Origin: Solirubrobacteraceae bacterium
GTDB taxonomy: Bacteria; Actinomycetota; Thermoleophilia; Solirubrobacterales; Solirubrobacteraceae
Direction of reading: 5' to 3'
Length of the DNA: 40,704 nucleotides
NCBI GenBank assembly: GCA_017882375.1
Contig: JADGPP010000027.1
Location: 1 to 40,704 of the forward strand
Positions 36,402 through 39,939 of the stretch are shown piece by piece. A program made the translations under genes and the position numbers. The notes below the pieces were generated by a model. The model ran no database searches. It saw only the letters and a program-made list of their open reading frames with translations, and had not been told where the DNA came from. Each line of letters opens with the position of its first letter. Within the stretch, counting starts at the first letter, position 1.

Positions 36402-37262
36402 TCAGCCGCGCGCGGCGATGCCTTTGTCGCGCAGGCGCATCGCCAGTGCGATTTCCTTGCGCGATGGGCCTTCGCGGTTCTCGCCGGGGGTCTCCAGGAT
36501 GCACGGCAGCTTCTGCAGCGAGGGAGCCGAGAGGAAGGCCGCGCAGCCCTTGCGACCGAGCTCGCCGGCGCCGATGTTGGCGTGGCGGTCGCGGTTTGAG
36601 CCGAGTGGGGTCTGTGAGTCGTTGAGGTGCAGCGAGCGAACGGTGCCGCGCCCGAGCTTGCGCGAGCACTCGCGCAGCACCGAGCCCATCTCGTCCGGTG
36701 TGCGTATGTCATAGCCGGAGGCGAGCAGGTGGCAGGAGTCCAGACACACGCCGAGGCGCCTGCCGGCGTCGGCGGCGTCGAGCAGCTGAGCGAGCTCGTC
36801 GAAGGAGCGCCCGAGCGTCCCGCCGGCCCCGGCGGTGTTCTCCAGGTGAAGCTCGCAGCCCTCGCTGTCGTCGAGCGCCTGTGCGATCGTCTCGCCTGCG
36901 CGCGCGATCGCCTCGCCGACGTGGCCTTTCTTGGCCGAGCCCGGGTGCAGGACGACGCCGGCGGCGCCGATCGCCTGCCCGACGCGCAGCGAGTGTGTCA
37001 GCGAGGCCAGCGATTTGGCGCGGATGTCCTTGTCGTCCGAGGCGCAGTTGAGCAGGTAGACGGCGTGGATCAGCACCGCTTCGATCGGGCTGTCGGCCAT
37101 CGCCTCGCGGAAGGCGGCGATGTCCTCGTCGCCGTAGGCCGTCGGTTTCCACATGCGCGGCGACTGGTTGAAGATCTGGATCGCCTGGCAGCCGCGCTGC
37201 ACTCCACGCTCGATCGCCTTCGGCAGGCCGCCCGAGGGCGAGACGTGAGCTCCGATTAGCAT
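36402..37262 (-). CDS. nfo: endonuclease IV (apurinic/apyrimidinic endonuclease)
   Basis: A 286-residue TIM-barrel AP endonuclease that cuts 5' of abasic sites in base excision repair. The N-terminus LIGAHVSPSGGLPKAIERGVQRGCQAIQIFNQSPRMW is typical. Metal ligands appear in order: AHV; LIHAVYLLN; LHPGS; LHLENTAG; CLDSCHLLASGYD; LHLNDSQTPLGSNRDRHANIGAG; and CILETPG. The ATG at 37262 leaves only 11 bp to the divergent gltX start. With SRAP and DnaE it is one of three DNA-damage or replication genes of the window, but they are not linked in operons. Confidence 0.96.
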   Translation of the reverse strand: MLIGAHVSPSGGLPKAIERGVQRGCQAIQIFNQSPRMWKPTAYGDEDIAAFREAMADSPIEAVLIHAVYLLNCASDDKDIRAKSLASLTHSLRVGQAIGAAGVVLHPGSAKKGHVGEAIARAGETIAQALDDSEGCELHLENTAGAGGTLGRSFDELAQLLDAADAGRRLGVCLDSCHLLASGYDIRTPDEMGSVLRECSRKLGRGTVRSLHLNDSQTPLGSNRDRHANIGAGELGRKGCAAFLSAPSLQKLPCILETPGENREGPSRKEIALAMRLRDKGIAARG

Positions 37263-37276
37263 GCGAGCGGATTATG
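37257..37276. promoter_or_regulatory. overlapping divergent start/-10 region of nfo and gltX
   Basis: TAGCAT (37257-37262, plus strand) is 11 nt before the gltX ATG and contains the complement of the nfo start codon. CATAAT on the minus strand (37276-37271) is 8 nt before the nfo ATG and contains the complement of the gltX start codon. Transcription in the two directions would compete for the same 20 bp. Confidence 0.5.
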
Positions 37277-38647
37277 AGGGTTCGCTTCGCACCATCGCCC
37301 ACCGGGGCGCTGCACATCGGCGGCGCGCGCACGGCGCTGTTCAACTGGCTGCTCGCGCGTCACTTCGACGGCACGATGGTGCTGCGCATCGAGGACACCG
37401 ATCGCGAGCGCTCGACGCCGGAGAACGTGCAGCAGATCCTCGACTCGCTGCGCTGGCTGGAGCTCGACTGGGACGAGGGGCCGATCATGCAGACCGATCG
37501 CAGCGAGCGCCACGGCGAGGCGCTGCAGGCGCTGCTCGACGCCGATCTGGCCTACCGCTCCAACGCGACGGCCGACGACGTCAAGGCCTACAAGCAGCGC
37601 CACGGCGCCGAGCGCGGCTTTCGCGGCGAGGGCGAGCAGGGCGGCGCGGTGCGCTTGCGCGTGCCCGACGGCGCGACGGTCGTGCACGACGCGGTCCGCG
37701 GCGACACGCGCTTTGAGCACGTGCACATGGACGATCCGGTGATCGCCCGCGCGGACGGCTCGGTCCTGTACAACTTCGCCGTCGCGATCGACGACCTCGA
37801 CGCGCAGATCACGCACGTCGTGCGCGGCGAGGATCACCTGTCGAACACGCCCAAGCAGCTGCTCGTGCTGGAGGCGGCGAAAGCGGTCGGATTCGGCGAC
37901 GGGGCGCCGCTGCCGCAGTACGCGCACCTGCCGCTGCTGCACGGCCCCGACGGCAAGAAGCTCTCAAAGCGCCACGGCGCAGCCTCGGTCGGCGAGCTGC
38001 GCGACGCCGGCTACCTGCCGGCGGCCGTGCGCAACTATCTGGCGCTGCTCGGCTGGGGGGCCGGGGACGATCAGACCGTGCTGTCGACGCCGGAGCTGGT
38101 CGAGCGCTTCACGCTGGACAGCGTCAGTCGTAATCCGGCGCGTTTTGACGAGGTGAAGCTGAAATGGCTCAACGGCGTGTACATCCGGGCGCTGGGAGTC
38201 AAGGATCTCGTCGAGCGGGTGGGCGAGTACCTCGATGCCAATGGCCATGCGGGATTCCGGGGTGACCCGCGCTTCGCCCGCGCCGTGGAGATCAGCCAGG
38301 AGAAGATTCACACGCTCGCCGACTTCTGGGCGCTCAGCGGTCCGCTGCTCGCCGGCCCGGTCGACGACGCCAAGGCGCGCGAGCGCTGGCTGGGGCCGCA
38401 GGGCGTGGCGGTGCTCGCCCAGGAGCGCGCGGCGCTGGCGCAGGCCGCGAGCTTTGACGAGGCGGCCGTCGCGCAGACGCTGGAAGCACTCGTGAGCAGC
38501 CTCTCGGTCAAGCCGCGCGAGGTCTACCAGCCGCTGCGCGTGGCGACCACCGGCACGACGGTCTCGCCGGGCATCTTCGAGAGCGTCGCGCTGCTGGGGC
38601 GCGAGGAGACGCTACGGCGCGTCGACGCCGCCCTGTCGCGCCGCTGA
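37274..38647 (+). CDS. gltX: glutamyl-tRNA synthetase
   Basis: A 457-residue class I synthetase charging tRNA(Glu), and possibly tRNA(Gln). The HIGH-type motif is FAPSPTGALHIGGARTALFNWLLA at the N-terminus and the KMSKS-type loop is KKLSKRHGAASV. The C-terminal helical anticodon-binding part is complete (LADFWALSGPLLAGP ... VKPREVYQPLRVATTGTTVSPGIFESVALLGREETLRRV). The last block matches discriminating or non-discriminating GluRS equally, so Gln mischarging cannot be judged. Translation must start at ATG 37274, since the motif begins immediately after. The stop codon lies in a perfect hairpin. Confidence 0.97.
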   Translation: MRVRFAPSPTGALHIGGARTALFNWLLARHFDGTMVLRIEDTDRERSTPENVQQILDSLRWLELDWDEGPIMQTDRSERHGEALQALLDADLAYRSNATADDVKAYKQRHGAERGFRGEGEQGGAVRLRVPDGATVVHDAVRGDTRFEHVHMDDPVIARADGSVLYNFAVAIDDLDAQITHVVRGEDHLSNTPKQLLVLEAAKAVGFGDGAPLPQYAHLPLLHGPDGKKLSKRHGAASVGELRDAGYLPAAVRNYLALLGWGAGDDQTVLSTPELVERFTLDSVSRNPARFDEVKLKWLNGVYIRALGVKDLVERVGEYLDANGHAGFRGDPRFARAVEISQEKIHTLADFWALSGPLLAGPVDDAKARERWLGPQGVAVLAQERAALAQAASFDEAAVAQTLEALVSSLSVKPREVYQPLRVATTGTTVSPGIFESVALLGREETLRRVDAALSRR

Positions 38648-38739: not shown

Positions 38740-39939
38740 ATGGTCGATCTGAACGCTCCACCCGCACGTATGCAAGCAACCGCTGCCAAGTCAAAGACCA
38801 AGACCGCCGCAAAGCCGAAGTCGAAAGCCAGGAAGGCCAGTCCCGCCAGGAAGGCAAGCGCTTCCGAGCAGGCCCGCCGCCCGGCCTCGTCGGCTCCGGC
38901 TCCCGCTTCCGGTGAGCGCCACCAGAACGAGGGTCACGGCCGGCGTCTGACGATCGCCTTCGAGGCGCTGGAGGCGTTTCCGGCCCTGGCCGAGTCTCGC
39001 GACCGGCTGCTGACGGTCGTGGCCAGAGACCACGTCGCGACGGCGGACGTCGTCACGGCGGTGGAGTCCGACGTCGCGCTGATCACCGCCGTGCTGCGCC
39101 TGGCCAACCAGGTTCAGGGGCGGCGTGGACGCGTCGACACGGTGGTCGCAGCCGTTGAGCTGCTGACCCCGCAGACCGTGCAGGCGCTGGCCACGCGCCT
39201 GCGCACGTTCGACTTCTTCGAGCGCTCGAGCGTGTGGGAGGCGGCTCCCGAGCGCTTTCGCCTGCACGCGCTCTCCACGCAACACGCGGCGGATCGCATC
39301 GCCGCCGAGGTCGGCTACGAGTACCGCGACCGCCTGACGGTGACGAGCCTGCTGCACGACATCGGCAAGCTGGTGCTGTTGCACGCCTATCCCGGCTATC
39401 CCGCGCAGGTCCACCGCGGCGCGCGCACGCCGGAGGACCGCCTCCACCAGGAGCGGCGTGAGCTAGGCGTCGATCACGCACTCGTCGGCGGCGTGCTCGC
39501 CCGGCGCTGGGGGCTGCCCGCGACGATCGCCTCGACGATCGAGCGCCACCACAACCCCGACGTCGACGGCGAAGCCGCCTGCGTTCGCCTGGCTGACATG
39601 CTCGCCCACTACGAGCAGGGAGCGCCGGTCTCGCCGGCGGAAATGCTGCGCACCGCAAGGGCCGTCGGCCTGGGCCCGGATGAGCTGCGACGCGTGATGT
39701 ACGAACTTCCCAGCGCCCCCACGCAGCGCCGGCGCCACGTCGATCCCTGCCCGCTCTCCGGACGCGAGCTCGGCGTGCTGCAGCGCTTGGCCGAGGGCAA
39801 GGTGTACAAGCAGATCGCCCACGAGCTGACCTTGTCGACGAGCACGGTGCGCACGCACCTGCACAACATCTACGGCAAGCTCGGCGCGGTCGATCGTGCA
39901 CAGGCGGTCTTGATCGCCACAGAGCGCGGCTGGCTCTAG
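38740..39939 (+). CDS. HDOD domain protein fused to a LuxR-type helix-turn-helix
   Basis: A 399-residue signalling protein. Residues 12-50 are a Lys/Ala/Ser-rich, histone-like tract. An HDOD domain spans about 70-290, with an HD pair (LLHDIGK, H206-D207), a further IERHHNP block and the helical HDOD core (VTAVESDVALITAVLRLANQ). A LuxR/NarL helix-turn-helix follows (337-395; LSGRELGVLQRLAEGKVYKQIAHELTLSTSTVRTHLHNIYGKLG). HDOD proteins often act in motility, cyclic-di-GMP or stress signalling, and most lack hydrolase activity. No receiver domain is present. The basic N-terminal tract may add non-specific DNA binding (inference). An in-frame ATG at 38770 is an alternative start. A sigma-28-like promoter precedes it. 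Confidence 0.87.
   Translation: MVDLNAPPARMQATAAKSKTKTAAKPKSKARKASPARKASASEQARRPASSAPAPASGERHQNEGHGRRLTIAFEALEAFPALAESRDRLLTVVARDHVATADVVTAVESDVALITAVLRLANQVQGRRGRVDTVVAAVELLTPQTVQALATRLRTFDFFERSSVWEAAPERFRLHALSTQHAADRIAAEVGYEYRDRLTVTSLLHDIGKLVLLHAYPGYPAQVHRGARTPEDRLHQERRELGVDHALVGGVLARRWGLPATIASTIERHHNPDVDGEAACVRLADMLAHYEQGAPVSPAEMLRTARAVGLGPDELRRVMYELPSAPTQRRRHVDPCPLSGRELGVLQRLAEGKVYKQIAHELTLSTSTVRTHLHNIYGKLGAVDRAQAVLIATERGWL

What the first reader, a model, noticed from the sequence alone, without database searches (positions are those of the whole stretch)
37257..37276. nfo and gltX: each start codon lies inside the other's -10-like box
Seen: divergent ATGs with only 11 bp between them. 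TAGCAT for gltX covers the nfo start codon, and CATAAT for nfo covers the gltX start codon. Both start codons are fixed by family N-termini. Inference: transcripts are leaderless or nearly so, polymerases compete for the same 20 bp, and a point mutation in one start codon would damage the other promoter. It would couple AP-site repair to tRNA charging.
Basis: partly seen in the sequence, partly recalled or inferred. Interest (0 to 1): 0.6.

Follow-up and report, generated by a model that had tools for sequence, protein, structure and literature searches.

The report
Start codons inside opposing gene promoters
Two neighbouring, oppositely directed genes (a DNA-repair enzyme and a tRNA-charging enzyme) are so close in these soil bacteria that the start codon of one very probably forms part of the promoter of the other, and comparison of about 120 related junctions shows that this has fixed a rare codon choice in the repair gene.

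Summary
In detail: divergent nfo and gltX ATGs lie 11 bp apart, TAGCAT (37257-37262) covers the nfo start and CATAAT (37276-37271, minus strand) covers the gltX start. The gltX half is strongly supported. TAGCAT requires the rare Leu codon CTA (1.4% of Leu codons) as nfo codon 2. In 119 Solirubrobacterales junctions an NTA codon 2 and a separate TANNNT in the spacer never occur together (59 vs 50, 0 both, 10 neither). This held in 23 freshly fetched junctions and in 7 of 7 informative independent tree pairs. All 59 overlapped nfo genes start with ATG; GTG starts occur only without the overlap. The nfo half is genus-level: 16 of 20 congeners have TANNNT or CATAAT 6-10 bp before nfo, but 0 of 44 short-spacer relatives outside the genus do. 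In more distant Thermoleophilia the two genes share one symmetric TANNNTA (18 of 19 coupled loci, 5 of 29 uncoupled), the textbook bidirectional-promoter layout. TANNNT is concentrated 6-11 bp before start codons genome-wide, so near-leaderless mRNAs are likely. No transcript data exist, and coupling of DNA repair to tRNA charging is unsupported. A new variant of a known kind.

The parts
36402..37262 (-). nfo, deoxyribonuclease IV (endonuclease IV), 286 aa
   Evidence: TIGR00587 E=1.2e-74; ORF
37257..37259 (-). nfo codon 2, CTA (Leu), a rare codon; supplies TAG of the gltX -10 box
   Evidence: sequence; CTA 1.36% of Leu codons; CTA/GTA kept in 42 of 52 junctions with spacer of 17 bp or less
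37260..37262 (-). nfo start codon ATG; supplies CAT (including the final T) of the gltX -10 box
   Evidence: ATG in 59 of 59 overlapping junctions, 14 GTG among 60 without overlap
37257..37262 (+). proposed gltX -10 element TAGCAT (TANNNT), ends 11 bp before the gltX ATG
37263..37273 (.). 11-bp spacer GCGAGCGGATT; its interior is not conserved
37271..37276 (-). proposed nfo -10 element CATAAT, ends 8 bp before the nfo ATG and covers the gltX start codon
   Evidence: 16 of 20 congeners have TANNNT or CATAAT at gap 6-10, shuffles mean 0.42, max 3; not seen in 44 short-spacer relatives outside the genus
37269..37269 (+). predicted gltX transcription start (inference, +/-1-2), leader about 5 nt
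   Evidence: inference: about 7 bp after the hexamer; not measured
37264..37264 (-). predicted nfo transcription start (inference, +/-1-2), leader about 2 nt
   Evidence: inference: about 7 bp after the hexamer; not measured
37274..38647 (+). gltX, glutamate--tRNA ligase, 457 aa; its ATG is positions 37274-37276
   Evidence: TIGR00464 E=1.9e-123; ORF

Best explanation
The junction is a compressed bidirectional promoter of two (near-)leaderless genes. RNA polymerase reads TAGCAT, made of nfo codons 2 and 1 on the complementary strand, as the -10 box of gltX, and starts a few bases before the gltX ATG. In the opposite orientation it reads CATAAT, which contains the complement of the gltX ATG, as the -10 box of nfo, and starts about 2 bases before the nfo ATG. 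Both melted regions fall on the same 10-14 bp, so only one polymerase can occupy the site at a time. Selection for the gltX promoter fixes ATG (not GTG) as the nfo start and a CTA/GTA codon 2. The likely history is spacer contraction in Solirubrobacterales from an arrangement like that of the wider class, where both genes share one symmetric TANNNTA midway between two start codons. Shown by comparison: the gltX box and its footprint in nfo. Shown only at genus level: the nfo box. Inferred: start sites, leaderless translation, mutual exclusion.
For: gltX box: in 119 order-level junctions, overlap without spacer hexamer 59, both 0, spacer hexamer without overlap 50, neither 10; the fresh set alone gives 6 overlap, 15 spacer, 0 both, 2 neither; 7 of 7 informative independent tree pairs in the predicted direction, p=0.016. 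Where the spacer is longer, the same TAGCAT, or TAGnnT, sits inside it and nfo codon 2 is usually CTG. Val GTA (TACCAT) in L072, L165, L172 and L272 keeps the TA although the residue changes. In several order members outside the family TAGCAT lies exactly 6 bp before an in-frame GTG/ATG of gltX. Genome-wide TANNNT peaks 6-11 bp before starts. nfo box: 16 of 20 congeners, with different sequences (TAGGAT, TAAGAT, TAGAAT, TAATCT, TATGAT, CATAAT), and all 9 with gltX close by carry it. Five congeners whose gltX has been displaced keep CATAAT, and in three of them codon 2 is CTG. Class-level: symmetric TANNNTA in 18 of 19 coupled loci, 5 of 29 uncoupled (tallied by hand).
Against: No transcription start data exist for this organism. 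CATAAT lacks T1 of TANNNT, and its AT-rich class is rare before starts (2 of 245). The nfo box is absent in all 44 short-spacer relatives outside the genus, 14 of which have Shine-Dalgarno-like words instead. The gap of 11 bp for gltX is at the edge of the genomic distribution. Five overlap cases have gltX more than 20 bp away, so some overlaps may be relics. Part of the mutual exclusion is forced by lack of room in short spacers. CATAAT retention in displaced congeners may partly reflect recent insertions.
Confidence: 0.62

Rival explanations
1. Only the gltX half is real: TAGCAT is the gltX -10 box, while nfo is transcribed from a promoter inside gltX or by other means, and CATAAT over the gltX ATG is coincidence.
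For: The nfo-side box is absent in 44 of 44 short-spacer relatives outside the genus, so nfo can be expressed without it. CATAAT lacks T1. SD-like words precede nfo in 14 of 44.
Against: 16 of 20 congeners carry a -10-like box at gap 6-10 against 0.42 expected, with varied sequence. Five displaced congeners keep CATAAT without a gltX start to constrain it. 42 of 49 class-level nfo genes have such a box.
Confidence: 0.27
2. The hexamers are by-products of tight gene packing and of start-codon and AT-rich 5'-codon preference, with no promoter function; transcription starts lie deeper in the opposite genes.
For: CAT is fixed by coding in both hexamers, AT-rich early codons are common in high-GC genomes (general knowledge), and the two-hexamer sigma-70 scan finds nothing.
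Against: CTA is 1.36% of Leu codons and an NTA codon 2 occurs in 2 of 245 ORFs, yet CTA/GTA is kept in 42 of 52 short-spacer junctions and replaced where TANNNT sits in the spacer. GTA replaces CTA with change of residue in four loci.
Confidence: 0.06
3. A regulatory switch: competition of the two polymerases couples nfo and gltX expression for a purpose.
For: The divergent pair is kept across much of Thermoleophilia, and the geometry forbids simultaneous occupancy.
Against: Basal competition was negligible at tested E. coli bidirectional promoters (PMC12825309). Relatives have separated the genes by insertions from tens of bp to over 2 kb.
Confidence: 0.05

Closest known systems
Bidirectional promoters with symmetric -10 elements (Warman, Middlemiss, Grainger and colleagues)
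   Same: Divergent transcripts from one short DNA segment, and polymerases that cannot bind both ways at once. In class-level relatives TANNNTA with 5 bp on each side gives start codons 18 bp apart, the commonest spacing reported (PMC10268837, PMC12825309).
   Different: In the window the two -10 boxes are not shared: they lie 8 bp apart, each over the other gene's start codon, with predicted starts about 5 bp apart.
Leaderless genes of Actinobacteria with TANNNT about 12 bp upstream (Zheng 2011 PMC3160421; Cortes 2013 PMC3898074)
   Same: The same -10 consensus without a -35 box and the same position relative to start codons genome-wide.
   Different: Here the box is formed by the coding sequence of the divergent neighbour, and the window's gaps are 11 and 8 bp rather than the mode of 6.
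Closely juxtaposed divergent promoters in M. tuberculosis (e.g. prpD/Rv1129c, both leaderless, PMC3898074)
   Same: Two adjacent divergent leaderless genes.
   Different: No mutual embedding of start codons in -10 boxes is described there in the passages read.

Membership tests
Bidirectional promoter (Grainger definition) | Divergent transcription starts 7-25 bp apart on opposite strands | not testable with these tools
   No 5'-end data; predicted about 5 bp (from hexamers) or 12 bp (if starts equal the start codons) in the window
Bidirectional promoter (Grainger definition) | Shared or reciprocally overlapping -10 element | tested here: not met
   Window hexamers 37257-37262 and 37271-37276 do not overlap; met in 18 of 19 coupled class-level relatives
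Actinobacterial leaderless gene | TANNNT with its first T about 12 bp before the start codon | tested here: inconclusive
   gltX: TAGCAT with first T 17 bp upstream; nfo: CATAAT 14 bp upstream, not TANNNT; genome-wide TANNNT peak at gap 6-11
Actinobacterial leaderless gene | No Shine-Dalgarno sequence upstream | tested here: met
   No GGAG/GAGG/AGGA-like word in GCGAGCGGATT or in its complement
Actinobacterial leaderless gene | mRNA 5' end at the start codon | not testable with these tools
   No transcript data; no start-site study of Thermoleophilia was found
Promoter-coding overlap under selection | Hexamer conserved beyond codon need in relatives that keep the gene order | tested here: met
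   gltX box. nfo box: met only within the genus

The most novel reading that the evidence does not exclude
A reciprocal lock: each gene's start codon is a required part of the other's -10 box, so start-codon identity (ATG, never GTG) and codon 2 of a repair gene are dictated by the promoter of a tRNA synthetase gene and vice versa. It arose by collapse of an ancestral symmetric, 18-bp-spaced promoter of two leaderless genes.
Probability: 0.5. Interest if true: 0.65.

Novelty: new variant of a known kind. Interest (0 to 1): 0.52.

Why it matters
It gives a clean comparative case of a promoter constraining the start codon and synonymous codon choice of a neighbouring gene, with natural controls in which the genes drifted apart and the codon is the common one. 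It also gives a series of layouts (shared symmetric box versus mutually embedded boxes) for how bidirectional promoters of leaderless genes evolve, in a bacterial class for which no start-site maps were found. It adds no evidence that DNA repair and tRNA charging are co-regulated.

Tried and rejected
Sigma-70 two-hexamer scan: no site; not informative for TANNNT promoters. Genome-wide search for the symmetric layout CAY-N5-TANNNTA-N5-RTG against the same pattern with AT for TA: no excess, and the control is imperfect because TA is avoided in coding DNA. The idea that all 20 bp are conserved was rejected: the spacer interior varies freely. The idea that nfo's box is conserved across the order was rejected: 0 of 44. 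Repair-tRNA coupling was rejected as unsupported. No paper describing reciprocal start-codon/-10 embedding was found, but the library holds only open-licence papers.

Full report
What is there. The window lies in a Solirubrobacterales genome (class Thermoleophilia, Actinobacteria; nearest named relatives). nfo (minus strand, ATG 37262-37260) and gltX (plus strand, ATG 37274-37276) are divergent with 11 bp between them. Family matches fix both N-termini. TAGCAT at 37257-37262 is the reverse complement of nfo codons 1-2 (ATG CTA). CATAAT on the minus strand at 37276-37271 is the reverse complement of ATT plus the gltX ATG.

Is the -10 idea reasonable in this genome? In 348 kb of it, TANNNT occurs 6-10 bp before the first start codon of 50 of 245 ORFs and in 1-4 of 245 at control distances; the peak is at 6 bp (9%) and 9 bp (5.7%), with internal start codons near zero. 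This matches the published actinobacterial picture: TANNNT, no -35 motif, and about 20-26% leaderless genes (PMC3160421, PMC3898074). ORF starts here were called crudely (first start codon), so the true fraction may be higher.

The gltX box. TAGCAT needs CTA as nfo codon 2. CTA is 1.36% of Leu codons, and an NTA codon 2 occurs in 2 of 245 ORFs. I collected junctions from relatives. In those of the order with a spacer of 17 bp or less, codon 2 is CTA or GTA in 42 of 52. Where the spacer is longer, codon 2 is usually CTG or CTC and a TANNNT, most often TAGCAT or TAGATT, stands in the spacer before gltX. The two states exclude one another: 59 overlap only, 50 spacer hexamer only, 0 both, 10 neither. 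I formed this rule on the first sets and then tested it on 23 newly fetched junctions: 6, 15, 0 and 2. On a tree of gltX plus the nfo N-terminus, 7 of 7 informative independent pairs go the predicted way (p=0.016). Part of the exclusion is trivial, because very short spacers have no room for a second hexamer. The retention of a rare codon is not trivial, nor are the four loci that keep TA with a different residue (Val GTA). The nfo start is ATG in all 59 overlap cases, while GTG occurs in 14 of 60 others, as expected if the last T of the hexamer is needed; the tree-based test of this point alone lacks power. In several order members outside the window's family, TAGCAT lies exactly 6 bp before an in-frame GTG or ATG of gltX, the modal leaderless distance.

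The nfo box. Of 20 congeners (window included), 16 have TANNNT or CATAAT 6-10 bp before the nfo start (shuffles: mean 0.42, maximum 3). The sequences differ (TAGGAT, TAAGAT, TAGAAT, TAATCT, TATGAT, CATAAT), which suggests selection on the pattern rather than shared ancestry alone. All nine congeners with a close gltX start carry it, overlapping that start. Outside the genus, 0 of 44 short-spacer relatives have it, so this half is lineage-specific; how nfo is expressed there is unexplained (SD-like words in 14 of 44).

Natural separations. In five congeners gltX has been displaced by inserted DNA (L006, L014, L015, L017, L018). All keep CATAAT before nfo, and in three of them nfo codon 2 is CTG. 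L015 (displaced, CTG) and L016 (close, CTA) are sisters with 99/99 support. In L009, L011, L019 and L025, TAGCAT stands in the spacer near gltX and nfo codon 2 is CTG or TTG. Recency of some insertions weakens the CATAAT argument.

The wider class. In coupled loci of other Thermoleophilia orders the two genes share a symmetric TANNNTA: 18 of 19 coupled, 5 of 29 uncoupled (my tally from the table, with gltX starts chosen among in-frame candidates). The cleanest cases (L094, L112, L232, L222, L201, L202) are start codon, 5 bp, 7-mer, 5 bp, start codon: start codons 18 bp apart, which is the commonest spacing of divergent starts at bidirectional promoters (PMC10268837). When gltX is elsewhere, nfo usually keeps its own TANNNT and gltX has another at its new place.

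Mechanism. Best reading: one polymerase at a time binds this segment in either orientation, starting near-leaderless gltX or nfo messages. The gltX box is well supported (about 0.85 on its own), the nfo box moderately (about 0.65). Start sites, leaderless translation and exclusion are inferred. Functional coupling is not supported: basal competition is negligible at tested E. coli examples (PMC12825309) and the pair is repeatedly broken.

Novelty. Bidirectional promoters and leaderless TANNNT genes are both known. The embedding of start codons in each other's -10 boxes, with a codon footprint, is a new variant; I found no description of it.

Noticed in passing
L014 and L274 (one congener genome); L008, L015, L017, L018: The nfo/gltX junction looks like a repeated insertion site in the genus. 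In L014/L274 a 17-bp repeat GCGGATTATGAGGGTTC flanks both sides and the inserted DNA encodes an AAA_25-type ATPase piece. The L008 insert ends in a tyrosine-recombinase-like fragment (HECRCTFASLIIAAG, by eye; no Pfam hit).
   Followed up: partly
L085-L112, L201-L232 (other Thermoleophilia orders): A symmetric TANNNTA shared by nfo and gltX midway between two start codons, and its loss when the genes separate.
   Followed up: yes
L033, L052, L064, L068, L069 (Conexibacter-like, 9-bp spacer): nfo has GGAG 6-9 bases before its start and no upstream -10 box at the leaderless distance, so its message would need a leader starting inside gltX.
   Followed up: partly
L141, L144, L151, L166: No in-frame gltX start codon lies between the genes; the nearest in-frame candidates overlap or lie inside the nfo start region (e.g. 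a shared CATG in L141).
   Followed up: no
window 38740-39939: A 399-aa protein joins an HD-type domain (HDIG match) to a C-terminal LuxR-type DNA-binding domain, just downstream of gltX.
   Followed up: no
L105, L109: The symmetric box is kept though gltX is elsewhere or not recognisable; a GTG stands at leaderless distance on the vacated side, perhaps a different gene using the same promoter.
   Followed up: no
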